Part shown: positions 24,156 through 54,073 of the stretch, piece by piece
Position numbering within the stretch: position 1 is the first letter of the stretch
How the letters are laid out: every line of letters starts with the position of its first letter
From: Boletus sp. NGJ
Lineage: Eukaryota > Basidiomycota > Agaricomycetes > Boletales > Boletaceae
Reading direction: 5' to 3'
DNA: 64,000 nt
Assembly (NCBI GenBank): GCA_019096195.1
Contig: JAGTXK010000073.1
Span: 1,550,001-1,614,000, forward strand
The notes under the pieces: model-generated
Database searches by the model: none
Told to the model about the DNA's origin: nothing
Seen by the model: the letters and a program-made list of their open reading frames with translations, nothing else
Position numbers and translations under genes: made by a program

Positions 24156-26633
24156 TCAATCAAACACAATTTTTGTCGCCGTGCCCGTGATATCATCTCT
24201 AAAGAATGCCCCATACGAACCATGTGTCCTCTTCTTGATCGTCATCGGGAACTTCTGCAACCTGTCTGCCATCTCGTCAAAATGAGAGTCTCGGAGCACG
24301 CGAGCTAGTTCGCCAGCGAGGGCTCGTTCGTGGTTCTCTCCCGTGAAGAACGTGATCGATTTTCCGCTGCGTCCAGCTCGGCCTGTGGGCGATACAAGAA
24401 TGTTAGCCGGAGCATGTGAGGCAAATCGACATTTGAACCACTCACCAGTTCTTCCGATCCGGTGAATATAATCCTCAATAGTCAGTGGGAAGGTATAATT
24501 AATGACAGCCCCAACATTTGGGATATCCAGTCCCCTCGCTGCCACATCAGTTGCCACTAATAGCCCGGTTTCGCCGCTCTTGAATTTCTCTAGAGCATCC
24601 ATACGTGCGGATTGCGACATATCGCCATGGAGCGCACCGACAGAATATCCTTGTTGGCGAAGTGTGGATTCGACCCGCGATGCTTCCTTTTTATAGAGTG
24701 CAAAGACAAGAATGCGAGCTTCAGGAGAGCCTTTCGTGGATTTTTTCTTGTGAGAAAGCGTTTTCAGCGTTTTCGACAGACGAGAGCTGGAAAGTTGGTA
24801 AGCACCGTCAAAGAACGAAGGAATGTAGATACGGTGGTGCGAAACGATCCACGTACTCCTTTTCCCGAGGGTCGTCAAATACTTCTATGATTTGCTCGAC
24901 ATGGCTATTCGCTGTCAGATCGTCGCTGCCGACGGTGACGCGGACAGGATTTCGCTGGAACGTGCTCGCAAGCTTCCGCACTGCTTCAGGCCATGTTGCA
25001 CTGACTGTAAAAGTCATGAGTGTCCAGGTAACTGAAGGGGAGTAACAGTCAGGGATGGACATACACATCATTGTCTGCCGATCATATCCTTGCATTGTGT
25101 AAGAGATGATCTTTCTAATGTCGTTCTCGAACCCGCGATCAAGCATCCTATCGGCCTCGTCCAGCACCAGATAGTTGACACTGACATTGCCAAGGGAGTT
25201 GAGACAGGATAGAGCATCATGGAAATGTGAACACACCTCGACAGATCGCAAGCACCCGCGTCAACTAAATCTAATATCCTCCCCGGCGTCCCGACCACAA
25301 TCCTTGTCAGTTTCCCGTCCTTGTCCCCATTCTTAAGAGCATTTATCTGCGGTGCTTTGTCGACACCGCCGAAAACGGCAACACTAGCAATATTGAAAGG
25401 AGCACCAAGGGCCGATAGAGCGTCGTGGGTCTGAAGCGCAAGTTCACGGGTTGGGGCTACGACGAGAATGGACACGGAATTCGCGGTTTTCGACTTTGAT
25501 TTTTTGGTTTTTAAGGCGTCTGGAGAGGGTATAGAAACGAGTCGGGCGAGGGCGGGTATGCCAAACGCCAACGTCTTTCCACTGTTCCGCAACTAGTCAA
25601 CTCCCGGCAATAGAATGGAGCAGTACTGTAACCGATGCCATAGAGGACACAGTATAAAAAGGACACACCTTCCTGTTTCGGCGATACCCACTACATCGCG
25701 TCCCTCCAAAGCGGGGGGCCACGCGCAAGCCTGAATCGGAGTAGGTTCTTTGAAGTCTTTGAAAGCTGCTTTCAGCGCGTCTGGGACCTGGAGCTGGTCA
25801 AAAGAGATGATGGGGATGACGGGTGGGAGAGAGGGGGGTGTATGGACGGTAATAGAATGCTTGGTGAGGAAGACGGAAGCATCAGTGGAGTTGGTGGGTG
25901 TAATGGCTATTGGGACGGGAGGTGGCAAAGCAGTACCTTCTGACGAAGTGACAGGTGTAGATGGTTGAGTATGAGACCCAGATTCGACTTGCTTGTCTTT
26001 TTTCCCTTTCTTTTGTTTTTTGGGTGGACTCGGTTGCTCGGTATTCGCGCCGTCTACGTCGCCTTCGGGATGGTGCTTACGCTTACGGTGCTTTTTATTT
26101 TCCACAGTGGTATCTGGTAATAGTGGATCTGATAGAGGAAGTTGCAGAGGGCAAGAAAAGACGGGCGTGGAAGTACTACTCACCCATATCCATCGATGCT
26201 TGTTCTACTGACTCGGGTTTTTGTGAGTTAGGTGTGCTATCCCCTTTCTTCGACTTTTTCTTTGACTTGTTTCCGCCCCACTCCTTTTCGGAAGACTGGG
26301 CCGAGTCGTTTTTGCCTGCACGAAATTATTCAGGGCCCTTGGGCCCAGCAGGATGACGATTGCGTACCTACAGCCATCGGAGGGTGTCCGATGTCAACTT
26401 TGGTGACGAGAGCATGTTCTTCATTCTTGTAAGAGTTTCGTCGGCTTTTCGTCTTGTCTTCTTTCTTCTTCTCGACTGACTTGTTCGTGCTGGGTCAATA
26501 TGCTGGATTCCGTGAGATGGAGGGACAGACCTTTATCGATGCCTTCTAAGTGTGGTGGTTGACCGGTAGCGAGATCTACTTTCTTTGATTTCTTGCGCTT
26601 TTTCGACCACTCGTCCTGTGCGTCTTTAGACAT
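24156..26633 (-). CDS. DBP3: ATP-dependent RNA helicase DBP3 (60S ribosome biogenesis)
   Basis: Starts at 26633 on the minus strand with a Lys-rich N-terminus typical of nucleolar helicases, then a helicase core. Visible motifs: Q-motif [18 protein letters not shown], motif I completed across an intron (ETG/SGKT), Ia APTRELALQ, Ib [46 protein letters not shown] and [17 protein letters not shown]. The ending THGSYGAFF is characteristic of Dbp3. In yeast Dbp3 acts in pre-rRNA processing of ITS1. The stop is the TGA at 24158-24156. It shares a 154-bp gap with DOT1 on the other strand. Confidence 0.92.
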
Positions 26634-26787
26634 TGTGTCTGGCTCAAGCTTGCAGGGTATCTTGACTCTTGCTGAGTTAATAGTAATCACGTGATTGAGG
26701 GGACGCGAGACCGCCATAAATGAGTGATCCCGCCAACGAGTGGACATCCGGCAGGCTGTGGCCCGAAAAACGCTGGCAGAGGACGAC
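26634..26787. promoter_or_regulatory. Bidirectional promoter DBP3/DOT1 with 12-bp E-box palindrome
   Basis: Only 154 bp separate the two start codons. In the middle, 26685-26696 is the perfect palindrome AATCACGTGATT, an extended E-box. Its symmetry and central place make it a good candidate for a shared activator site. Confidence 0.55.
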
Positions 26788-28894
26788 ATGACAGTACCAG
26801 AGATATGCGTGACTACCCGACGGGCTTGGAAGACGCAGCTGCACCAACTGGAGGCACAGGCACACGCCCTCGCTACACCGAGTCAGCCCCATGACACGTC
26901 CAGCCCACCCACCTCCTCTCCCGACTCCCTTTCTAATTCCTCCAGTCCACTCACAGATACGTCCGAATTTGATCTCCCTTCTCCTTCCCGCGAGACTTCC
27001 GTCTCTGCTTCCTCTTCATCCAAACGACAGCGTGCACCCACTCTCGTCGATGCCCCGAGAGTGACCCGTCCCGGCAAGATCAAGAAACGTGCTAGCACCA
27101 GTGCGCGCACCTCGCGGTCATCTTCCAGAGGGGAGAGCAGACAGAGAAGCGTCGCGTTGGACGAACCTATCTATCGTTCTGACAGATCCCGTTCTACCTC
27201 GGCATTCCCTCCCCCTGCCAAAGTACTTACCAGGGAATGGGAATGGTGGTCGATCGAGGACGGGTCTCCCGGGGATGGCTTTATTAGCGCTGCCGACGTC
27301 GTGCGGAGGCTGACAAAGACGTACAAAAGTTGTGAGTTCCGTACGAGGTATGATGCATGAGATGGTACTTATTCTGTGCGGAAGACTTTAGGAATCCCGA
27401 CGATCCAGACGATAAGTCTTTCGAGGCTGAGAATCTTCCAACTGCTGATTTAGAGTATCCTAATAATTATGCTAATGAAAAGTGCGTGTTCCATCACCTT
27501 TCGACCGCGCTCTCTCGGTTTTCATGTTCTCGACACAACGTAGATTTATGTTATTGGTACCTAAGGACAAGGATCATTATAACCCCATCATGTGCTTGGA
27601 ACACTCGCTATATACTATCATCGACTGTGTGTACAGTTTTTTATCCATTACAGTCTTTGTTAACAATCTTCTAGTCTATCTTAACCCTGCGCAGAAAGCG
27701 TTATTTGGTTCATTACCCACCGAATCACTCTCCGACGACACCCCACCCCCTTCCCCTTCTCCACTCACCCGACCTGACCCTTCTGATGCTTCCAATTCCC
27801 TTGATGCTCCACCAGAACCCCCCAACCCGCCCCAACTACATACCGTTCCCGCTCGGCCAGATCACCTTCGATTGCTCCAACGTGCCATCCGTCGACGTGA
27901 TGGCCCGCTCTTCCTCTCCACTCTTGAAACCATAAACCAACTTCTCCGTTCACTCAAATACCCACCTCTCCCATCAGACGTATTCCTTCCCGCCCCACCC
28001 AATGTGTTAACCTCTGCTGTACGCGCATGGACACATCCAAGGGGAATCCCCGAAAAAGTCTTGTTGCGGATAGTAGATGAAACGTATCAGCGATGTGTTG
28101 GCCCTAACATCAAATACTTGCATCGCTATGAGGCATTCTCAAGCGAGGTGTATGGCGAGCTAATGCCCGGCTTTACTTCTGATATTATCGCCGCTACGGG
28201 TCTTAATTCTTCTTCTCTCCTCATGGACCTTGGCTCAGGAGTAGGCAACGTGTTGCTACAGGCATCCCTCCAAACAGGGTGTCGGAGCTACGGGATCGAG
28301 CTCTTGGAGGGTCCTGCAGATGTTGCAAGGCAACACTGGAAGCAATTTCAGAAACGGTGTCGGATGTGGGGCGTGCGCACTGGCGATGTCGAGCTCGAAC
28401 AAGGTGATATGCTTCGGAGCAAGCGAGCCTCGGAGCTGCTGGGAGAGGCGGATGTAGTTTTGGTAAATAACAAGGTGTTTCAACAATCTCGTGAGTGTCT
28501 TATTGTCTCGCTCCAGGATGTCGCGTCTGAAGGATGTACTCCGCGTCAATTGTTCGTAGTGAACGAGGCGCTGAGAGCGAAATTCTTGGATCTCAAGGAA
28601 GGCGCAATAGTGGTTTCGCTCAAACCCTTCGTGTCTCCTAATGCCCGCGTGACGGAGCGCAACGTACGTGAACCGATTTGTCTACTTGGATCATACCATG
28701 ATTACATGCCCTTCCCACAGGTCGACGATATCTGTGCCATTTTCGACGTCGTCGAACGGCCATATCGGTCTGGGAGTGTCTCATGGGGAAGTGGTGGTGG
28801 GACATACTATTTGCATCGTGTCGATAGGGTGGGGTATGCAAATGTTAGGCAGCGATTTGAGAATTTGCGAGCGAGGAGTGCGAGACGGCGGTGA
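26788..28894 (+). CDS. DOT1: Histone H3-K79 methyltransferase
   Basis: The first ATG (26788) gives a Ser/Thr-rich, basic N-terminus suited to nucleosome binding, followed by the catalytic DOT1 fold. Visible are YGELMPGFTSDIIAATG, the S-adenosylmethionine loop DLGSGVGNVLLQAS, YGIELLEGP and the active-site NNKVF, which a 69-bp intron (28491-28559) joins to LNEALRAKFLDLKEG and IVVSLKPF. Other introns lie near 27330-27390, 27480-27543, 27628-27675 and 28663-28720. The protein ends RARSARRR at TGA 28892-28894. By family knowledge it methylates Lys79 of histone H3 in nucleosomes. The frame is intact. Some internal introns are multiples of three or open in frame, so retention would lengthen the protein rather than stop it. 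Confidence 0.92.
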
Positions 28895-29559
28895 CAGGGG
28901 AAGGGGCTATGGACCACATGGTGATCTTGTTGGGAGATGTACAATGAAGATGATATCGGTCGTGCACGCTCTAAGTAGGATGTTGACTCCTGACAGAGTT
29001 TAAATAGAGACTCTGGAGATTGTGCCTGTGGCCATCAAAGAAGATTTATTACTAGAGGAAGCGCCGGTTCCGGCAGTAACCTTGTTTACAGAGAATAGTG
29101 CACCTGAGATGTTAACGTAGGCAGTTGCCGGTCCAAGACACATACACAAGATACGCGAGGGGGGCCAGGTTGATCTGAAGGCAGTATAGATTACATCCAG
29201 AGATTGTAACCCAGTTATAAACTACAGGTGTCAGGCAAGAAGACAGGGACACGAGTACGAAGCAGTGACATAGCGAGAAGGGAAGAACCTGAGGGAGTGT
29301 ATAGAACAAGGGGTGTAGCAAAAGGGAAAGGGGGGTTATGAACAAGAGGGAGTATATCAGTACACGGAAAAATCAGCTGTCGAACGGGGATTTGCCAAAC
29401 ATCAAATCAGAGAAGGAAAGGACGAGAAAGTTGCAACCAAGGTGCGGTTTGAAGTCAAGTACGAGACTTATTGCCAGGAGATGCGGCGCTAACGCGAACA
29501 CGTTTGAAGGGGCTGCTGGGTAGCGCGTCGGGACCGCGAAGGACTTGTAACCTCCGCAA
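28895..29559. other. Intergenic sequence between DOT1 and Helitron debris
   Basis: DOT1 3' flank passing into what is probably eroded Helitron sequence. A few short frames are open, but I could not match anything before about 29560 to the helicase. Confidence 0.4.
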
Positions 29560-30003
29560 CAATGTTGCCTCGTAAGGATGCTGAGCACAAAAGTAACGCA
29601 GCTCGAAGGATTGGAGCAGAATGTGATACCAATCACACCATTAGATCGAACTTTCACAATCGCCGCAGGGAATCACAACAAAACAATTCACAGGACTCAG
29701 TACCCGCTCACACCGGCGTACGCATTCACCGACTACCGTTCGCAGAGACAAACAATACGCCACGCAATAATTGACATAGGAACACCGCCAACCGGATCAC
29801 TAACCCCATTCAACATATACATGGCGTTATCGCGGTGTCGCGGTCGAGACAACATCCGTTTACTACGGGATTTCGACGAGAAACTCCTAACAAGCCATCC
29901 CAGCGAGTATTTACGAGCGGAAGACGAGAGGTTGGACAAGTTGGACAGAGATACGAAACAGTGGTGGAACAGTTTACAAACAACTACTGCCATGCCAAAC
30001 TAA
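29560..30003 (+). mobile_element. 5'-truncated Helitron: C-terminal end of the Rep/Pif1-like helicase
   Basis: The plus frame ending at TAA 30001-30003 codes about 145 residues of the last part of a Helitron helicase. Hallmarks are LEGLEQNVIPITPLDRTF, the segment TQYPLTPAYAFTDYRSQ leading to QTI, DIGTPPTG, FNIYMALSRCRGRDNIRLLRDFD and the acidic tail RAEDERLDKLDRDTKQWW. The usual QGQT of this motif reads QRQT here. Rep nuclease and the ATP-binding half are missing, and an in-frame stop lies shortly upstream, so it cannot move by itself. No clear CTRR terminus with a hairpin could be fixed downstream. Confidence 0.85.
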
Positions 30004-30216
30004 CCCATGAATAATGTACATTGAAAACGAACAAAACCGAGACATGCATAGTAAAACGACACAGCTACATAGAATCCACCGAACATACGTGCCAAAGAGA
30101 TTCAGAAAATGAGGACGTTGAACACAGGCGCGGTCTAAAGTCGATACATGTAAATACACGAATTACTTAACGTATGAAAAGGCTTGGCGTGACTGACTAA
30201 GTTGTAATGCGAAGAT
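30004..30216. other. Short AT-rich spacer after the Helitron tail
   Basis: Contains no motif I recognise; it may be the remaining 3' end of the Helitron or the 3' UTR of the next minus-strand gene. Confidence 0.3.
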
Positions 30217-31173
30217 TTACTGATGGCCGGCAGCCGGCCCCCGATCCAAACCAACATCTTGCATTTGTCCTGAATATTGATTGAAGAGAGTTAGTAATGG
30301 ATGGAATAAAAAATTAAACTTACCAGGAAATATCTGATACTCATTCGGAATCCGAGCCGCCCAACGTTGACGGCTGATTACAGCCCTGGCTATGTCATGT
30401 GCCTTCTTGGCAGCCACTGGGATGTACCAGAGGAAGTGCATCTGCCTTGTGAGATAGTGAGGCTGTTGAGCCTCACCAATCCCATTAAAAGCGAGATTTG
30501 CTGCTTCAAGGATTGCCAATGAGAATATATAGCATGACGCGTTTGTTAGGTGGTACTGGGAGATGTCGTCGGAGATTGACACAATTAGATGGGATGTGTC
30601 GAGCAGTGTGGGCGCATGTTGAGGCTCCCACGTTAGATGATGCAAGCGGTCGTGCTCCATTTGGATTGTGCCGAGATCGCCAAGAATGGTGAACTTGTCA
30701 TTGGCTGTACCCCACAAGCCAAGTCTTGCAGGGAGCGAGTTGCCGGCGATAGTGCGCGAAACCCTGATTGCGACAGGGGCGAAATCTTCACTTGTGGTCT
30801 GGGCTGTCTGGCGGGGTTGGGTTACCAGGAGGACAAACTCATGTTGATATCCGAACACCGTCCGCTCCTTGTACAAGGAGATCTCTGTGATAACATAACG
30901 TCGTTCAGGGTCCCATTGATTCACGTTGTCGAACCATGCATGTGGCGTCCGGGGTGTGTGATTGGCGAGTAAGTTCTGCGTGGGGGATTTGGGTGTTTTC
31001 GTAGGCTTTTCAGTCTGGGAAAGAGAGGCGAGCGCATAGGGATATAAAACAGAAAATTTGAATTCCATCCTGATAATATTCTGGACTGGAATACGGTCAC
31101 AGGTGGTTTCAAAGACCTGCCGGAAATCCCAGCTGGCATATCCCAAGCGCTGCTGAGTCAGCCACATTGCCAT
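30217..31173 (-). CDS. Unrecognised protein, about 300 residues
   Basis: On the minus strand an ATG at 31173 opens a frame with MEFKFSVLYPYALASL, then WFDNVNQWDPERRYVITE and LYKERTVFGYQHEFVLLV, and a C-terminal half with many aromatic and hydrophobic residues. A GT-AG intron near 30325-30270 removes a stretch that is open in frame, giving a C-terminus GQMQDVGLDRGPAAGHQ. The last codons contain the GC palindrome GGCCGGCAGCCGGCC. I do not recognise the family. Its 5' end abuts the truncated ARP5 and its 3' end abuts Helitron debris, so it may have arrived with a mobile insertion. An internal start at 31068 (MEFKFS) is a possible alternative. Confidence 0.6.
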   Translation of the reverse strand: MAMWLTQQRLGYASWDFRQVFETTCDRIPVQNIIRMEFKFSVLYPYALASLSQTEKPTKTPKSPTQNLLANHTPRTPHAWFDNVNQWDPERRYVITEISLYKERTVFGYQHEFVLLVTQPRQTAQTTSEDFAPVAIRVSRTIAGNSLPARLGLWGTANDKFTILGDLGTIQMEHDRLHHLTWEPQHAPTLLDTSHLIVSISDDISQYHLTNASCYIFSLAILEAANLAFNGIGEAQQPHYLTRQMHFLWYIPVAAKKAHDIARAVISRQRWAARIPNEYQIFPGKFNFLFHPLLTLFNQYSGQMQDVGLDRGPAAGHQ

Positions 31174-33921
31174 TTTTGGTGGAAAGCCCGTATGAGTGTG
31201 CCGAATGTGATCGCCAGATTCAAGTATAACCAGCCATTGTTGTTGTTCGGAGAATGTGTTGACGCGGAGAGTGGGGCCAAGGGACAGGCAAAGACCCCTT
31301 GGGAAGGGGACGTGCTGCTCAACTTTGATGCACTGGTGGGCTGGTCCTCTCCGAGTTTCGGGTCCTACCCCTGCTTGTCTGAATTAGCGTACCTCGTGCC
31401 CTTCAAACCTCCATGTGACATTGCTTCGTAACAGAACCGATACATGCATCAGAGCTGACACGCATCTATTCTGCAGGAACATGGACTCGACTGTGCGTTC
31501 ATTCAACTGGGAATCGACGCCTCGAGCGTTGAGCATCCCGTACTGATGACCGAGCGTCTGGGATCACCCCTACACTCCCGCACACGTACGTCACTCTCTA
31601 TCATAGTGCTGTCGGGCAATTTCACCAACGCCAACATTTCAAGTAACCTCCGAGCTCATGTTTGAGCAATATTCCGTCCCCACGCTCGCATACTGTATCG
31701 ACTCTGTCATGTCGTTCTACCAGAACAATCGTCCTTTCGTGCCAAACGCACCGTTTGCTCAAGATGGATTGGTTATCTCGTTCAACCTGGCGTCTACTTC
31801 TGTAATTCCCATTCTAAGTAGGAGGGGCATATTGAGCCAAGCCAAGCGGTGAGTACTCGCTCAGACGAACTGTCACCCGTTCAAATTGGCATCTGCGAGC
31901 GCTGAACTGGACGTTTAAACACATGGGATACCATGGGGTGCACAGCAGAGTACAGAGTACTTGCTGAAGCTTATCCAGCTCAAGTACCATAGTTTTCCGA
32001 CCCGCGTCACGTCTACGCAGGCCGCCGTGCGTCTCCTTCACTTCGTTTCATCCATGCTCATCTCATGCCTTTTCCCACTTTCACCTGGGTGGTACAAATT
32101 GTGTGACCTTGAATTTCCATCCTGATTGTTCCAGTGGATGCTCCACAACTTTTGCGAATTCGCCACGGATTACCCCTCTACGCTTCGCTCTCTCAAAATC
32201 CCTGCCAACATGCGTGCTTCAGAACGAATAGTCCAGTTTCCTTTCGCGCTTCCTGTCGTGGGAGAGAAAACGGAAGAGGAACTTGCTAGGATTGCCGAAA
32301 AGAGGAAGGAACAGGGGAAGAAGTTACAAGAGATGGCAGCCAAAAATCGAATGGATAAGGTTTGCGTCACAGTGTTCTATCCTCTGCTGTTGCTGCCACT
32401 TGCATGCTGACGCTTGGTATCTCCACAGCTCATGCAAAAGGGAACCGGTTTACAATATCTCCTCAACCTGAAAGGAGGGCGTAGTGAGAATCTCAAACGT
32501 ACACGAAAAAAGGATGTGGATGGGACGGATGAGCCAGTGGTGCGTGACGCGTCATTCGCCCTCGGTACATTTCTTCACGACCGAGATAAACGTTAGGGAG
32601 AACCGACTTTCAATTTGGTCGATGTGCCGGATGCGGAGGTATTTTCATTTGCCTCTGGGAGGACGGACGTTCAGATTGTCTCTGGCACGTGGACTACATC
32701 GTAACAGCTCGACGACGAGGGCATCAAAGAGAAAAAGAAACAGAAACTCATGAAAGCTGGATGGGAAGCACGTGCACGAGCTCGACGGGAGAAAGAAAAG
32801 GAGAGAGAGGAGAAAGAAGCTGGAGAGCAGCGAGACGAAGAAGAAGGGGAGAACAATTTCGAGGAATGGGCGAGTCGTTTGCGAAGGGAGCAAGAGGTAC
32901 GTCAGCTTCCATCCCTCGCGCTGTACTAATCATAAGTGACCGTTGTCATAAACGCACATGATCTATTGTAGGCTTTGATGAACAAGATGAAGGAACGAGG
33001 AAGAAGGAAAGCGGCGCTTGCGGATCGGAAGAGTGTAGCGGCTCAAGTAAGGATGAAGAATATCACTTCGCTCGCGGCTGATGACAGAGTGTCGAAGAAG
33101 AAGCGTGAAGCTGGAGCAGGTGCGTTTTGCCTACAACCCGCTGAAATGTTGTAACTGGCACTGCACAGAGGACATGTTTGGTGCTGACGATGAGGATTGG
33201 GCCATATATCGCAAGATTATAATGCACTCTAGCCAAGTCATCAGCCCTGCGTGAACTTACACATTCCATTATTCTAAAACACGGCAGCGCCGTCGTCGGA
33301 CGAAGAGGAAGACTACAGCCAACTTCAGATTATCGAGAGCAAGCTACTACAATATGAGCCCACCTTCACTACCCAGCACACGCATGCCTCATTGTCTTCC
33401 CAGCGGTCCGCGCTGCTGTCGGCGTTCCGGCCTCAATACGTGGAATGCGATATCGCGGGAAACAGCCGGACACACCTGAACACGGAACGGTGGCGTGTCT
33501 GCGAGACGTACTTCTCGCCTGGGATGGCAGGCGTGGACTCGGCGGGCGTAGGGGAAGTTCTACAAAGCGTCCAAATCACGACTTGTCAAGGTCGGTGGTC
33601 GGGTTTTCCATCTTCCGTCCTTACGCTGACGATTTCGTTAATTTCCGGTTCTTGAATGTGTTTATCACGGGCGGTTAGTCGCAGTTCCCTGGTCTCCGCG
33701 AACGGATCTATGCGACGCTTAGGCCGATATTACCACCTGAGATGTACCTGGGCGAAGTGGTACGCGCCGCGGATCCATCGTTGGATGCGTGGCGGGGTAT
33801 GGCTGCGTTTGCGAATACGGAAGAGTTCAACTGGGTCGGGGTCACGAGAGAAGAATATGATGAGTGGGGCGGAGAACGGATTAAGCGGTGGTGAGGAGGG
33901 AACTGGAATTCCACTGTGTAA
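31174..33921 (+). pseudogene. ARP5: Truncated, decayed actin-related protein 5 gene (INO80 complex subunit)
   Basis: ARP5 similarity begins abruptly around VPNVIARFKYNQPLLLFGE (31195) and continues through KTPWEGDVLLNFDAL, EHPVLMTERLGSPLHSRT, FEQYSVPTLAYCIDS, the long Lys/Glu/Arg insert typical of Arp5 (about 32745-33110), EDMFGADDEDWAIYRKI, NTERWRVCETYFSPGMAGVD and DPSLDAWRGMAAFA. The conserved N-terminal nucleotide loop (IDNGS type) is missing upstream. Other damage: no GT donor after AIYRKI (sequence reads ATAATG), a one-base shift near 33565 before SKSRLVK, loss of the next intron's AG, an in-frame TAG at 33676-33678, and TGA at 33892-33894 where a Trp belongs in the usual RWWGGNWN ending. 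Taken together this is a dead copy. By family knowledge intact Arp5 pairs with Ies6 in INO80 chromatin remodelling. Confidence 0.8.
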
Positions 33922-34261
33922 AAAGCGATTTAAAAGGCGATAGGTGGCTACTAGCAGGCTGTGGTACTATCATGGACCCTCGATCGCACAATTTTGGCCA
34001 CTGTTTGAATAACTTTTCATTGGGTTTGAAGGAGCTCAATTGTTACCTTGCTGGAGGCAAGGTCATATGACGCGGATTTCGTCTGCCAATAATCAACAGT
34101 CGCAGATAGCCCCTCCGCTGTACTTTCATGAATATCATCTTTAGTGGCTGTGTATGTAACCCAATTTGATGTTCCTATTCTCAGCCTAAGTAGTACTAGT
34201 ACGTCGGTGCTGAGTGCTCTTTCTGCTTTTATCACAAGTCTGCGACGACGACTCGGAGGCC
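33922..34261. other. Intergenic region before the TFIIIC gene
   Basis: About 340 bp, moderately AT-rich, holding the TFIIIC promoter. No coding motif seen. Confidence 0.5.
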
Positions 34262-37200
34262 ATGGACGAGCTCGTGCACCATTGCCTACGTGAGCTCTCA
34301 TTCGATGGCGACCTTGGTAAGTCCTGTCTCCTCGGGCGACGGACGTCGCGTTCGAATCCCCCCTTGTACACTTCATTTTCTGAAATATCCGTCCATCGTC
34401 TAGGTTGTAACGTTTCACGCCTGAGAGAATTTATTGTTGGCTTCTACACTTCCCAATATGACCACACCCAACTCGTCGATGATGCATTCTGTGCCTTCGT
34501 ATGGTCAATAGTAGTACAACAACCGTCTGTCCGGGTTGGCACCCTCCCTCCTGGTTCGATCTCAGAGGTATACATCGCGCCACAGACGAGTGCTAAGCGC
34601 AAAGCTGCGGCAAAAGGAGAGGAACTTATCGCGGGAGTGCCTCCTTCCTTGGAGCTCGTCGAGGATGCTCGACATAAGCACCTGCAAGACTTGAAGTGCG
34701 AATACGGTGACAACCTGCGTATAGCAGTCGACCCCGGAACCTCCTTCGCTGCAATCACAGGTTCCCATATTAAAGTACGTGTGCATGCCAAGCACAGCAG
34801 TGTTAGTCTAACCTGCTCGTAGCCCCCTAAGCTCAGCCCTATGGTATACAGTGCACTTCAGCTGATCACTCGCGGCCGAGAAGACGGCATTACAACTGTC
34901 GAGCTCGGCCGAAAGACAAACTATGATCAAAAGACATGTTTTTATCTCATTAAACAGCTGGTCGAACTCAGTCTTATGTATGTTACATTTTTCCCTCCTT
35001 CGATGATTGTAGGTCTAATAGCTTTTTGAAGCATCAAAGCACGCCGCGGCGGTGTGGGGAACCACATATGTATCCATAAATATTTTGTCCAACGGAGTCC
35101 CCTCTGGCAGCAGATTCAGGACGAAGAGGCTCGGAATGGCGAAGCCATGGTTACTGGCGAACGTGCCGACACTGATGAGGAAGTTACTGGTCAAGACCGT
35201 TCATCACAAATTCTTTTTGATCCAATCGACTCTAGGCATCTCTCCAGTCTTCCGCTTGTTAAAAATCGGATCATCAAGCTGCTCAAAGGATCCAGAACTC
35301 ACATACATCAGTCCAATAACCTGCTAATGACCATCGTTAGTAGTCTCTTCGTGTAAATCCTGTTTCTCTTTGCTCATCGTATTCCAGGGTTTTGTGCATC
35401 CAACTAAGACGGACCGGCGTTTTTTCCAGACTAGGCTGCGGGAGTTGATCCAGCAAGGCGTCATCGAACGCGTTTTGGTTCCAAGCAGTAAAATGCGGGA
35501 TCGCACTATCAAATGTATACGCCTCGTAACGTCAGACAACCAGCTTTCAGAGGGTTCTGTGGTTGTGAGACAGGATGTGGATGAAGACGAAAAAGTAGTT
35601 GGCCATAACGAAGTTAGGGCGAATCTTACGATCCACAAGCAAGTGTCAAATTCGCTTGAGGAAGCTGGACCATCTGGCCTGACACTTAATGTAACCTGTG
35701 AAAAATACTTTTTGCGTATATGACCTAATTTTTTGACTCTAGGAAATATGTATTTCTCTCGGCAATTTCGACAAACGTACGATCGAACTTTTGCTCACGC
35801 GGGCCTCCAACAGCAGACCACCTGCTCATCTTCTTGACCTGGGGACTTTAGATCTCATGGAGACTTTTGGTAGGGAAAGACGCCACCGATATTTCACACT
35901 TGCGGCGTACAAATGCGTAATGGCAAGCGAACAACTACAGGACACAATTACCTCTGTGATCGACGTTGACCTGTCACGAGTCGGAGATTTTGCTATACTC
36001 GACCCCAAGCACTTCTATACTACCACAGCAAAGCTTCATTCTTACCAAGACTCGTTCAAAGATATCACGAGCGCAAAAGGAAAAAAGCGTAAAAGAGATG
36101 AAGAGGGAAGTAACGAAGAGGAGAGTGAGCCGCCTCCTAAGCCGAAGCGAGGTCGTCCCTGTAAAACGCCTGCACTCACGATTGTTTCCACAACCCCATC
36201 ACGCTCCTTACGACCATCGAAGCGAAGCCGAGCTAACGGAGGCGGGAAATCACGCTCAAATATCAACATTTCATCCCTGCGGCGCGAAAACGAGCTTTTC
36301 AAGGTCATCGAAAACATGGGGGGAATCGCAAACATGCACTCCAAGGACATTTATGAGGCACATACAGCACTCCTTGATACCATGTCACAGGCCAAGGAGC
36401 CGACTAGTGCGCCGGTTGGGACTCGTCTTGATAAACGTACTGCGGAATCTACGCTCAAGAACTTGGAAAACCGCGGACGAATCAAGATGCTCAGGACTTC
36501 TCTCATCGCTCCATCTGGGGTCAGCAGACCTGCTTGCTTGGTTTATCTCCCAGATACTCCCCAAGATAAAGTGAATGCTTTCCTTTGCCAAGTGGAAGAA
36601 GTCCAAAGTATTGAGGCCAAGTCTGTTCTGCGTAAAAAGGCAGAGGAAGCGCGTACCCAGCGAGAGCAGGAGATCCGGGGAGCCATCAAAGAGACACAGC
36701 AAGGCCCGCCGATCACACCCACCGCGAGCGTGAAGAAGAAAGGAAAGGTAAAGGAAGAAACCGAGGGTACATAATCCCTTCTCGTAATTTATGTGGGATG
36801 GGATGGGCTGACGTAAACTTTGAATTAGCATCGAGGCGCCCGAGATTTCATTGGACACAAGAGTTCGATGAACTAGCGCGTGACGCCTCTGCCATTATTC
36901 GAGCGCGATGTCGAGCTTCCAGACTCGACCTGTCGGCGTTTGATCAAGTATTTCCAACAGTACCCAGGAACTCAGTCAGGCAACGTATCACACATCTCAG
37001 AGATAATACTTCTGAGGATACGTACATGAAACGTCTGGAAGATCAGTGGTATACCATCTGGTTACAATACAGAGGAACGCCTCATCTTCCCGACGAAGAT
37101 CCCAACAGTTCTTCGAATTTTAACCTGATAAACCATATCGAATTCCTTCGGAAACATGTGGATAAGAATGCTTTGTGAGTGTCGAGATTTTTCTCACTAG

Positions 37201-38993
37201 TAAAACTCAGTGACGACCAGGCGGGTGGGATTCGTGGAATGCGAGGCACCAAGTAAGCTGGCCATTTCTGTCCAAGAACTCCATAAATTCTACGAGGTTG
37301 GAGAGGATGTTGTGCCTGCGCCGGCATGGGATTTCATGTGGGGCACGACGGTCGAAGAAGGCAGGGAAAAACAGTTTCGGAGCCAAGCCTTTACGAAGGA
37401 ACCCGATAGCATGTACGAGGGTACGAAGAATCAGAAGGTACAACTTGCGGAGGCAGCGTTGAAGGCATGTGTCTTCAATATCATCATTCACAGAAATATT
37501 TATGTGTTTCAAGATGGTCTTTGGCACGCCTAGCGAACTCTACGATCCCGATAGCGCCACTCGTTTACTTCATAGCGCTGGAGACCAGTGTGTCTCTGTT
37601 GCAAGATCCAATCTCCTGCACCAAGGGGTGTTGTCCAAACTTGTGCGAGATCCGAGGCAGCCAAAGCCTGGTAGGATGCTCAAGATCTCAGACGCGTATG
37701 TGGTAATACATGCGCCTGTCCGGATATATTGGTTATGATTATATAGCAATCTCAACTGCCTCGGCGGACCGTTTCCTCGAGGCTTGTTTCAGGATGCAAT
37801 TTCGCTGGAAGATATAGCTGTCGAAAGGGTGGTGGATGAAATGGAGTGGCCCTTAATCCCCTCGGAAGGTGACATCGTTACGTTATTACAACTCGTTTCC
37901 GAAGACCAGGTAAGCAAAACTCCATCACTTTACCTCGAATACTTATATGTAAGATTTTAGGTTGATTTTACTGTGGATTTATCCCAGTCGCGAGCTGCCC
38001 GGCAAATGATTGATTGGAATAGTAAGAGGGCAGGTAAAGTATTTTTACTCGCATCAGGAAGTTTGTTGACCGAATGAACAGATGACGAGGATATCGAAAC
38101 TAGCATACGATTAAGATTTTCCCGTACGTTCGTTGTAGGTCCGGGCGGAAATCAAGATCAATCTCCCGAGAGTCCCGTCGAACCAGATTCTAACACGTTA
38201 GGACAAGGGATCCATGGGACAACGCTTGATGGAAAAGAAGCTGCGTGTACCCTCAAAACTGAGGTCGGGGTCATCAATTGCTCTGCATGTATCGACACAG
38301 CCTTTGCAATATTTACATCCAGCCTCAGCCAATCAGATCGTGATCTCGCTCGTCGAATCCTCGACAGCGCACACAGATTGAGGGAGACTGGACTCAACAA
38401 GGCAGAATGTTTGGTATGTTCTTGACTTTATTGGAGTTGTATCGACTAAGCATTGTAGGGCTTGGAGTGCGGAGTAGGGGGACACATCCTTTGGCTTGTT
38501 CATAGGATGACATTAACATCGCCTCCTATATTGTTCTGGACATATTTCAATGCTCCAATACTAGTGGCTGCAAACTACTGTGGAGCCTGGACTGTAGCGG
38601 TATCCGATGGGCCTCTGACACTCGTCACTCCTCGACGGTGGCTTGATCTTCGCGGATGCAGACTCGACGATACATGGGGTGCAGCACAGCAAGCTGTAGT
38701 CAGCGTGGTTTTCCTGCACCCGGGTATCAGCCAGGTAAGCTCTGCTAGCACGGACCATTTTTTCCATTGAATTCATGATTCAGGCTGAGCTGCAATGGCG
38801 TCTGCGAACGGTGTACGACAGACAGGAGATTATCGACCTTCTTTCATCGCTACAGGAGGAAAATGTTCTGGAGTGCCAAACTGACGCATGTGTGGAAACC
38901 ATTCAGAGTTTGCCTGGATGGCTCAAGACGCTCGACGACGAAGAGACGGTTTTCTGGTTCATAGCAAAAAATCACCATTGGTATCAAATTTGA
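34262..38993 (+). CDS. TFC3: B-block binding subunit of TFIIIC (TFC3/tau138-like)
   Basis: A multi-exon gene of roughly 1,250 codons. The N-terminus (MDELVHHCLRELSFDGDLG) is joined by an intron to a winged-helix-rich region with SPMVYSALQLITRGREDGIT and VELGRKTNYDQKTCFYLIKQ, which is the B-block_TFIIIC domain. More winged-helix-like blocks follow (FFQTRLRELIQQGVIERVLV), then a Lys/Arg/Pro patch with an AT-hook-like KRGRPCK. The C-terminal half includes RFHWTQEFDELARDA, a homeodomain-like segment seen in this family, and ends with AELQWRLRTVYDRQEIIDLL. By family knowledge TFIIIC binds the B-box of tRNA genes and places TFIIIB for RNA polymerase III. The intron at about 36767-36829 joins its flanks in phase. 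Intron 1 carries a B-box-like GTTCGAATC at 34350-34358. The frame is intact. Confidence 0.88.
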
Positions 38994-39203
38994 CGGCTTT
39001 CATTTCGGACATAGTCAAGGCTTGTTAGTATCATTATTACATTCACGTTACGTTGGGGATTGTCTAGTCGGGCTTCTGTGCTAAATATTGGGTTCGCTTG
39101 CATGTAGTAATGAAGTCGATTTCGCACCGTAACACACGCGCACAAGCTCTCCAACTTGAAGCACTGGAATCCGCAGAGGTACATAGTACCCATTATGGGT
39201 ATG

Positions 39204-39211
39204 CTGACGTA
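39204..39211 (+). promoter_or_regulatory. CRE-like site TGACGTAA upstream of PRP16
   Basis: A CRE/ATF-type octamer about 50 bp before the PRP16 start codon. bZIP factors bind such sites; the role here is inferred from position only. Confidence 0.3.
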
Positions 39212-39258
39212 ATGAGCCACCTTTCAAGAATTTCTGGTTGCCTGTCTAGGCAACTTCA

Positions 39259-43768
<4,510 letters not shown>

Positions 43769-51877: not shown

Positions 51878-53359
51878 CTACAAGAAATATCGGTTCTTGC
51901 CCCTGACATCCGCATACCTGTCTGGTTTCGGTGGCTTCCCATAGACAGGCTCCCCGGTCTCTGCACGAGAATGGTATTGATTATCCGGGTCTTCAATGTG
52001 AGGAGTCGGGACTTACTCAGAAGGTCCTGATAGATCCTTGAAACAGCTGGGTTCCATTCTCCCCTCCACATGTGTGCGCCACCACCAATGGATCCATCCA
52101 GATTATATTTAGCCATAAACTCCCTTACTGGGAATCCAAGGCGTTGATCCATCTCTACAACCGGGACGTCGATCTGCGATTTCTGGGGAAGTAGAAGGAC
52201 CGTGTAGCGATGATACGGTGTACCCTTTTGAGGGTGTGGTGGTATGTACTTAGTGTGGGAGTTTATATTAGAGATCAGTGAAGGGGATGTCGCTGACAAA
52301 GGGATATTGGGTCTGAAGAGATTGGTCAACTGTCGGATAAACGTGGAGGCATGGGATACGTACTGCAACCAGTGAAGGAAGGATTGGTACGTGTTATTTG
52401 CCTCGTCGGGTACATCTAAATCTTGGTGAGCCAATGGACGATATCAAATATTTGCATTCAGTTACCTGGGTCTATCATAATCAATGTGTATAAACGCTCG
52501 TCCGTGTGGAACACATCTTTATGAAGCCTGGGTGGGTCTATGGTCTTGTTTCTGTTCAGAAAAGCGGTAACCTCTGAGCAAGAAAGCTAACCTGCTCCGG
52601 CAGCAAATAAATCCCTGGCTCCACGAATTTGTATTTCGGCACTGTCGACACCACCTTCGTTTGGTGCTCTGGGAAGGAGACGCGGAGGTCAAACGACGGG
52701 TGAAAGTCGGAAACTACGTCAGGTACGACATGCATTTGGTGAACGCGCTCCATCTAAGGGAACCAATGGGCCCGAATCAGTAAGAATAGTATCAAACAAC
52801 ATACTAAGAGGTCCAGTGCACCCTCCTTCCTCCAGCGCTGTTCGATAATGTGCCTATCTACCGCTTTGGACATGTTGGCTAGGAAAAGTGTCGTGCTATC
52901 AGAGCGCACCAGAATGCAATGACTGAAAACTGTTCACATACCCATCCCGTTTGCACACTTCCACTGAACCTCGGGGAAGTTTATCTTGCTCTGAATCTCG
53001 AGATAGCTCAGCTTTGCCTCCATCTGCCTGATTGCCACTGAATCCTGTTCGGGTGCTTGTTCGGCGGTCCTCAGCGAAACCTGAACATTTTGCATCTCTA
53101 CTTTCAATGCTTCCGAGTCTGCCTTGATGAACTTTAGAGCTTCATCAAATGCAGGAAGTACCCCGTGTGCAAGAGGCCTTTTCCAGTCTCGTGGCTGCTC
53201 GAGCGAAATGTTTGGTCGACGCGTCTTGAACGGTCGGGTTCGTCGTTTCTTGAGAGAGGCGTCTTCGGGAATTGACACTGTTGAAGTGGCTGCCTGTAGG
53301 GTGGTAGTGGTGCTAACCAGTCTGACCGACTGGGTTTTCAACCTCCGCATAGCGAACAT
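51878..53359 (-). CDS. MRPL35: Mitochondrial large-subunit ribosomal protein mL38 (MRPL35)
   Basis: Minus-strand gene starting MFAMRRLKTQSVRLVSTTTT, a basic, Ser/Thr-rich mitochondrial targeting sequence. The N-terminal half is helical (EALKFIKADSEALKVEMQNV, LSYLEIQSKINFPEVQWKCA). After several introns the PEBP-like domain follows: VSDFHPSFDLRVSFPEH, VEPGIYLLPEQ, DVPDEANNTYQSFLHWLQ, YIPPHPQKGTPYHRYTVLLL and a C-terminus with GGGAHMWRGEWNPAVSRIYQ and GKNRYFL at TAG 51880-51878. mL38/MRPL35 is the mitoribosomal protein with a phosphatidylethanolamine-binding-protein fold. All blocks join without frame loss. It is the last intact gene before the repeat-rich part of the window. Confidence 0.88.
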
Positions 53360-53731
53360 TATGAACGAACGGAAGTTGGGAATGGAGCAGAAAGCGCACT
53401 CAGCACCGACGTAGTACTAGTACTCTGCTGAGAATAGGAACATCAAATTGGGTTATATACACAGCCACTAAAGGTCTGAGTTTAGACTTGGGTAAGCAAA
53501 TCGGAGTCGGGTACCTTGCTTGGTATAGGCAACGGTACTATGAGAGGATGTAACTGAGAGGATGTACCTAGGTATTCACTGTTACATTTTACTGTAATCA
53601 TGTACAAGGCTTGATTATAGGCACAACCTTCAATCCCATGACACAGGGGCGAAGCCAAAAATTAGTGATGTGCAAAGTAACAAACCCAGACATTTGTTAT
53701 TCCAGCCAAACATCGGACCACCCAACAATCA
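53360..53731. other. mL38 promoter passing into AT-rich repeat territory
   Basis: About 370 bp. A tandem pair of a 14-bp unit (TGAGAGGATGTAAC) occupies 53541-53568. The base composition shifts towards A/T here. No gene seen. Confidence 0.45.
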
Positions 53732-54073
53732 TTGAATGCTGCTGAAGTGCATGCAATGCATGTTCGCAGTTGTTCCTCAAATCCAGATCATACTGAACTT
53801 CCGGAAATACTAGAACTTGCCATAGGCATGCCAGTTCTCATCACTCAAAACATCCACATGGAGCTAGACATAATGAACAGAGCCTGCGGTACTGTCGTTG
53901 ATATTGTCTTAAATTAAGCGGAACCACCACCTTCTTGGACACACAGAGTTGTTGACCTACTTCATCCTCCCACTTTTGTCCTTGTCAAACTACAACACTT
54001 GCTTGCACCTTGTTTTGATGTGGAACCTGAGACAATCATTCCAATCCATCCCATCAAGAAAACCACATCATGA
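53732..54073 (+). mobile_element. Pif1-like helicase fragment of Helitron type
   Basis: The plus frame codes LPEILELAIGMPVLITQNIH, then DIMNRACGTVVDIVLN, the Helitron/Pif1 helicase block in which the DNA is gripped. After an in-frame TAA (53915-53917) the same frame resumes with EPPPSWTHRVVDLLHPPTFV and an IIPIHPIKK segment. It is a small, dead piece of a larger helicase gene, with other parts absent. It differs from the fragment at 29560-30003, which covers a later part of the same protein type. Confidence 0.7.

What the first reader, a model, noticed from the sequence alone, without database searches (positions are those of the whole stretch)
31174..33921. ARP5 relic cut off at its 5' end next to Helitron debris and an unknown gene
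ARP5 similarity starts abruptly after the missing nucleotide-binding N-terminus, exactly where the unknown minus-strand gene begins, and a Helitron tail lies just beyond. The remaining body carries several independent defects: lost splice sites, a frame shift and two in-frame stops, including Trp to stop in the conserved C-terminus. This suggests an insertion removed the promoter and first exon and the rest then decayed. Arp5 is a core INO80 subunit, so either an intact copy lies elsewhere or this lineage has altered its INO80 complex.
Basis: partly seen in the sequence, partly recalled or inferred. Interest (0 to 1): 0.7.

Follow-up and report, generated by a model that had tools for sequence, protein, structure and literature searches.

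The report
Dead partial copy of ARP5
A fungal genome carries a broken, front-truncated second copy of the chromatin gene ARP5, wedged between transposon remnants, while a complete ARP5 lies about 46,000 bases away, so this is an ordinary duplicated pseudogene rather than the loss of a chromatin-remodelling subunit.

Summary
31197-34031 (+) is a 5'-truncated, decayed ARP5. Against B, A lacks about the first 75 codons and has deletions of 9, 151 (87 coding) and 23 bp touching exons, three introns with lost splice sites, one intron deleted, and two in-frame stops. The left break lies 3 bp from the end of a repeated ~1-kb unit carrying the unknown gene. The right break lies 11 bp from a Helitron-like 3' end. 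Two details go beyond plain decay. A and B differ by 1.8% left of 32442 and 6.5% right of it (0 of 2000 permutations), which suggests gene conversion. A shows fewer amino-acid changes (26) than a copy dead since birth should (46 expected; 1 of 2000 simulations), which suggests it worked for part of its life. Which locus is ancestral, and whether an insertion caused the truncation, could not be tested: no fungal relatives were available. Ordinary in kind; low interest.

The parts
27479..28894 (+). 3' part (stop-to-stop ORF) of the DOT1 histone methyltransferase gene, left neighbour
   Evidence: Pfam PF08123 E=1.3e-52
29051..30154 (+). Helitron-like element remnant (helicase C-terminal tail), cut off before its 3' end
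   Evidence: 93% identical over 1115 bp to L025, which runs on about 245 bp to a 3' hairpin; the tail itself has no Pfam hit; a relative's 284-aa ORF has UvrD_C_2 and Pif1_2B hits, both below cut-off
30178..31193 (-). repeated ~1-kb unit holding the unknown gene (ORF 30217-31173, 318 aa, P0001); its left end is approximate, set by eye
   Evidence: 70-74% DNA identity to L016, L017 and L022, each match stopping at 31193; protein matches at C81:1413k, C81:1404k, C35, C50; no Pfam hit
31197..34031 (+). ARP5-A: 5'-truncated unprocessed duplicate (pseudogene) of ARP5-B
   Evidence: 97% over 31197-32499 and 91% over 32490-34031 to C81:1629810-1632841 minus; alignment
31925..31926 (+). lost acceptor of intron 3 (AG>GG)
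32489..32490 (+). junction of a 151-bp deletion (intron 6 plus 87 coding bases)
33219..33277 (+). intron 11 with lost donor (GT>AT) and acceptor (AG>AA)
33572..33573 (+). junction of a 23-bp frame-shifting deletion
33653..33654 (+). lost acceptor of intron 12 (AG>TG)
33676..33678 (+). in-frame stop TAG at Ser666
33892..33894 (+). in-frame stop TGA at Trp738
34043..34114 (-). Helitron-like 3' terminus (hairpin CCTTG...CAAGG, then TAA), truncated at 34114
   Evidence: six other places in the genome, one of them partial; hairpin plus TAA also downstream of 7 of 11 related helicase tails; other copies run on past the point matching 34114 (by eye)
34262..36774 (+). start of TFIIIC subunit (GTF3C1/TFC3-like) gene, right neighbour
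   Evidence: eWH_GTF3C1 E=2.8e-4 and TFC3_eWH E=0.002, both below cut-off; DUF6581 E=1.9e-15 in the next ORF; start codon by eye

Best explanation
31197-34031 is an unprocessed (intron-bearing) duplicate of ARP5 in inverted orientation, about 46 kb from a complete ARP5 on the same contig. It has lost its promoter and about the first 75 codons at a junction with a repeated unit, and its body has been broken by deletions, lost splice sites and stops, so it makes no Arp5. Arp5 is supplied by the complete copy. Shown: the duplication, the truncation and defects, and the completeness of copy B. Inferred: the duplicate worked for part of its life before dying (low amino-acid divergence), the two copies exchanged sequence in their 5' halves by gene conversion, and transposon activity in the DOT1-TFIIIC interval was involved in the final truncation.
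For: Whole-assembly searches find two ARP5 loci, A and B. B's spliced model is open from ATG to stop, 746 aa, 12 GT-AG introns, and aligns along its length with Arp5 of solved INO80 complexes, 48-740 against 58-765 of 6fhs_J, E=8e-141. A keeps 11 of B's 12 introns in recognisable form, so it was not retrocopied. Of 11 gaps in the A/B alignment, A lacks 8, three of them touching exons; B lacks 3, all inside introns by their coordinates. Of five changed residues at which the two outgroup chains shown agree (by eye: 344, 464, 512, 573, 698), B keeps the common residue at three, A at one (698), neither at 344. Past constraint: dN 0.017-0.019 against dS 0.068-0.095 over 627 codons; 26 amino-acid-changing or stop codon differences in 629 compared codons, against 46 (sd 6.3) expected if A had been neutral since the split, reached in 1 of 2000 simulations. 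Conversion: a change point at 32442, 22/1240 against 103/1586 substitutions, 0 of 2000 permutations; longest identical run 340 bp, 0 of 2000.
Against: No transcript data. No fungal relatives could be searched, so the direction of copying and the date are unknown. The constraint test assumes that introns and 3' flank evolve neutrally and that both branches are equally long. The change point could reflect something other than gene conversion, such as two successive duplications. B's own upstream DNA is unusual (see rivals), so B's expression is inferred from its open frame only. One residue (698) is better preserved in A than in B.
Confidence: 0.88

Rival explanations
1. The DOT1-TFIIIC interval is the original seat of ARP5: the gene was copied to its present place beside a Ras/Rab-family GTPase gene, took over there, and the old copy was truncated and died (relocation by duplication and loss).
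For: A was apparently under constraint for part of its divergence from B. B's 5' flank looks foreign to within about 5 bp of its ATG (by eye): G+C drops from 0.53-0.57 to 0.17-0.27, followed by a high-copy element at L009 9392-9530 and a further repeat from 9758 that leads into an LTR-retrotransposon-like stretch (read by eye in L012).
Against: B's downstream flank is an ordinary convergent gene, and A is the copy wedged between repeats on both sides. The pattern fits either direction. No synteny could be tested.
Confidence: 0.3
2. Insertion of the repeated unit (unknown gene) into a full-length ARP5-A removed its 5' end and killed it.
For: ARP5 homology stops 3 bp from the point where similarity to the other members of the repeated unit stops; L016 and L022 compared with each other also stop within 2 bp of it.
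Against: L016 and L017 are one larger inverted duplication (97% over 1407 bp, past that point), so the unit's end rests on two independent copies besides the window's. A simple insertion would leave the 5' piece on the far side of the unit; it was found nowhere except in B, so a deletion must be added. The Helitron-like tail on the far side is itself truncated, pointing to several deletions.
Confidence: 0.35
3. A Helitron-like element captured a fragment of ARP5 and carried it here, as captured genes lie downstream of the helicase in Pleurotus Helitrons.
For: A helicase tail lies upstream (+) at 29051-30154, and a Helitron-like 3' end sits 11 bp beyond the relic. In Pleurotus HELPO1 elements the captured genes lie downstream of the helicase (PMC4289320, passages).
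Against: The 3' end at 34043 is on the other strand and its element runs away from the relic, and the left element is cut before its own 3' end. ARP5 sequence occurs only at A and B, so there is no second copy of a composite. [quoted passage not shown]
Confidence: 0.07

Closest known systems
Arp5 subunit of INO80 (solved chains 6fhs_J and 8eu9_R; Chaetomium and yeast as recalled)
   Same: Copy B aligns over residues 48-740, with the long insertion between the actin-fold halves; A is the same gene at 91-97% DNA identity
   Different: A lacks the first phosphate loop, and its C-terminus is closed by stops and a frame shift
Duplicated (unprocessed) pseudogenes
   Same: Introns kept, parent nearby, stops, frame shift, lost splice sites, no promoter
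   Different: 5' half much closer to the parent than the 3' half; amino-acid divergence lower than for a copy dead from birth
Basidiomycete Helitrons (HELPO1/HELPO2 of Pleurotus, PMC4289320, passages)
   Same: Helicase tail followed by a terminal hairpin; gene-like sequences downstream of the helicase
   Different: Ends read GGTAA with no CTRR after the hairpin; the ARP5 piece is not bounded by one element's ends

Membership tests
Duplicated pseudogene of ARP5 | High similarity to a functional-looking parent in the same genome | tested here: met
   91-97% DNA identity to B
Duplicated pseudogene of ARP5 | Introns retained (not a retrocopy) | tested here: met
   11 of 12 introns recognisable in A
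Duplicated pseudogene of ARP5 | Disabling lesions | tested here: met
Duplicated pseudogene of ARP5 | No product made | not testable with these tools
   no RNA or protein data
Functional Arp5 (copy B) | Open full-length frame with actin-fold halves and Arp5 insertion | tested here: met
   746 aa; PF00022 in two stretches; Arp5 chains are the best PDB matches
Functional Arp5 (copy B) | Expressed | not testable with these tools
   5' flank is AT-rich and followed by repeats
Helitron capture of a host gene | Fragment lies between the 5' and 3' ends of one element | tested here: not met
   3' end at 34043 is on the minus strand with the relic outside it; the left element lacks its 3' end; 5' ends were not looked for
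Helitron (the flanking remnants) | 3' hairpin a few bases before a CTRR end | tested here: not met
   hairpin present, but the end reads GGTAA, no CTRR; hence 'Helitron-like'
Helitron (the flanking remnants) | Helicase of the RepHel type | tested here: inconclusive
   no Pfam hit in the window's tail; UvrD_C_2 and Pif1_2B below cut-off in a relative's ORF; the Rep part was not searched for

The most novel reading that the evidence does not exclude
The relic marks the former seat of ARP5: a chromatin-remodeller subunit gene moved about 46 kb by inverted duplication, the two copies worked side by side and exchanged sequence by gene conversion, the old seat died among transposons, and the surviving copy now runs from an AT-rich, possibly transposon-derived upstream region.
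Probability: 0.25. Interest if true: 0.4.

Novelty: new member of a known kind. Interest (0 to 1): 0.2.

Why it matters
It removes a false alarm: nothing at this locus shows that the lineage has lost or altered Arp5. If the relocation reading held, the locus would be a small, datable example of how an important single-copy gene changes place by duplication, a period of double function, and loss. It also warns annotators that a gene model could be built on the dead copy.

Tried and rejected
Altered INO80 complex: rejected, because a complete ARP5-B exists and DBINO is present. Retrocopy: rejected, introns kept. Helitron capture: disfavoured by strand and ends. Haplotype or mis-assembly duplicate: the stretch beside B with the GTPase gene (L009 4500-5900) and the stretch beside A with TFIIIC (34115-37000) have no second copies apart from the ARP5 tail and an 89-bp segment, so a whole haplotype block is not duplicated there; the DOT1 side was not searched, and long reads were not available. 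The missing 5' piece displaced elsewhere: not found. A known RNA family at the 72-bp repeat 34043-34114: none; the one listed match over 26000-40000 lies elsewhere and far below its cut-off. Known function for the unknown gene: no Pfam hit. Source of the AT-rich flank of B: no other copy in the assembly, though that search skips simple repeats; a mitochondrial origin was considered by eye only. Literature: one search for Helitron capture in basidiomycetes (one paper, passages seen), one for an ARP5 pseudogene in fungi (one unrelated paper in the listing, not opened), one on Arp5/INO80 (listing and abstract starts only).

Full report
The window is G000:C81:1550001-1614000, part of an unnamed 32.8-Mb genome in 141 contigs. 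Intron structure and neighbours (DOT1, TFIIIC) make it a fungus; a basidiomycete is my reading, not a tool result.

Observation. A DNA search of the whole assembly with 31000-34150 returns the locus itself and one other strong place, C81:1629810-1632841 on the minus strand, matching 31197-32499 at 97% and 32490-34031 at 91%; the remaining hits lie in the flanks, not in ARP5. A protein search with the complete ARP5 finds the same two loci, plus one match at E=6e-10 to another actin-family gene on C65. The facing ends of the two copies are about 46 kb apart, in inverted orientation.

The other copy (B) is complete. Its exons, set by GT-AG introns, join to a 746-codon frame from ATG (L009 9065, minus) to stop (5930): 13 exons, 12 introns. 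The protein's best solved-structure matches are Arp5 of INO80 complexes, 48-740 aligned to 58-765 of 6fhs_J at E=8e-141, and Pfam gives Actin in two stretches. The Ino80 DBINO domain is also in the genome, C81:790031.

Against B it lacks the first 224 nt of exon 1 (about 75 codons) and everything upstream. It has a 9-bp exonic deletion, a 151-bp deletion with 87 exonic bases, and a 23-bp exonic deletion that shifts the frame. Intron 3 has lost its acceptor, intron 11 both sites, intron 12 its acceptor, and intron 6 is gone; 8 introns keep their borders. Ser666 and Trp738 are stops. Of 11 gaps, A lacks 8 and B 3; B's three fall inside introns 1, 3 and 11.

Left junction. The unknown minus-strand ORF (318 aa, P0001, 31173-30217) belongs to a small repeated family: L016 and L017 on C81, and L022 on C50 with an equal-scoring mirror-image match on C35. 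Similarity of the window to each stops at 31193. L016 and L022 compared with each other stop within 2 bp of the same point, whereas L016 and L017 are one larger inverted duplication, 97% alike over 1407 bp and past that point, so they count as one copy. I therefore read 31193 as the end of a repeated unit, 3 bp from the start of ARP5 homology, on two independent copies. The missing 5' part of ARP5 was found nowhere else but in B. Beyond the unit lies a Helitron-like helicase tail, 29051-30154, 93% identical over 1115 bp to L025 and cut off about 245 bp before the 3' hairpin that L025 has. The tail itself has no Pfam hit. The name rests on PIF1/UvrD hits below cut-off in a relative, the terminal hairpin, and recall of Helitron helicase sequences; CTRR ends are absent.

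Right junction. Homology to B ends at 34031. Eleven bases on, at 34043, is a Helitron-like 3' terminus on the minus strand, 72 bp long, with matches at six other places, one of them partial. The exact hairpin CCTTG...CAAGG followed by TAA is in the window copy and 2 of those 6 (L020, L021). It is also downstream of 7 of 11 related helicase tails (L024-L027, L029, L031, L034); L028 has the hairpin without TAA, and L030, L032 and L033 gave no match. As a caution, the bare hairpin pattern without TAA also occurs at two other window places and once in L011. Because the element's body lies on the far side of this end, the relic does not lie inside it.

Two features go beyond plain decay. First, substitutions are unevenly spread: 22 in 1240 aligned sites left of 32442 and 103 in 1586 right of it, with none of 2000 permutations giving so strong a change point; the longest identical run is 340 bp, crossing exon and intron. 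Gene conversion between the copies is the simplest reading. Second, third codon positions differ more than first and second (36 against 16 and 12), dN is 0.017-0.019 and dS 0.068-0.095. If A had been neutral since the split, about 46 codons should show amino-acid or stop changes; 26 do, and 1 of 2000 simulations was as low. This suggests that A was under selection for part of its life. The test leans on noncoding rates and equal branches, and conversion complicates it.

Copy B sits beside a convergent Ras/Rab-family GTPase gene (PF00071). Upstream, to within about 5 bp of its ATG by eye, G+C falls to 0.17-0.27. That stretch has no second copy in the assembly and is followed by a high-copy element and another repeat family. 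Whether this is B's promoter was not testable.

Conclusion. The finding is a genuine pseudogene: an inverted, unprocessed partial duplicate of an intact ARP5. Its cause (insertion plus deletion at the repeated unit, or a truncated copy from the start) and the direction of copying remain open for lack of fungal relatives. In kind it is ordinary.

Noticed in passing
34139-34227 and 53386-53473: An 89-bp segment just upstream of the TFIIIC start codon has an inverted 91% copy just upstream of a minus-strand gene starting near 53359 (mitochondrial ribosomal protein-like by eye, recalled; no Pfam hit). Only these two places match in the assembly: a shared promoter-proximal segment.
   Followed up: partly
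L009 9066-9400 (C81:1633066-1633400): The stretch directly upstream of the intact ARP5 start codon is 16-27% G+C, has no second copy in the assembly, and leads into a high-copy element (10 places listed at 96-97%, a capped list) and an LTR-like repeat.
   Followed up: partly
contigs C35 and C50: Hits of the unknown gene family fall at mirror-image coordinates with equal scores (sums 271701), so these contigs may be reverse-complement duplicates of one region in the assembly.
   Followed up: no
30217-31173 (-): Small repeated gene family (318-aa ORF, no Pfam hit) with a 3' intron shared by eye; the two other copies on C81 have open frames of 273 aa.
   Followed up: partly
53512-54065: Another Helitron-like remnant, 89-92% identical to six loci (L029-L034) whose helicase frames are open over 217-284 aa.
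   Followed up: no
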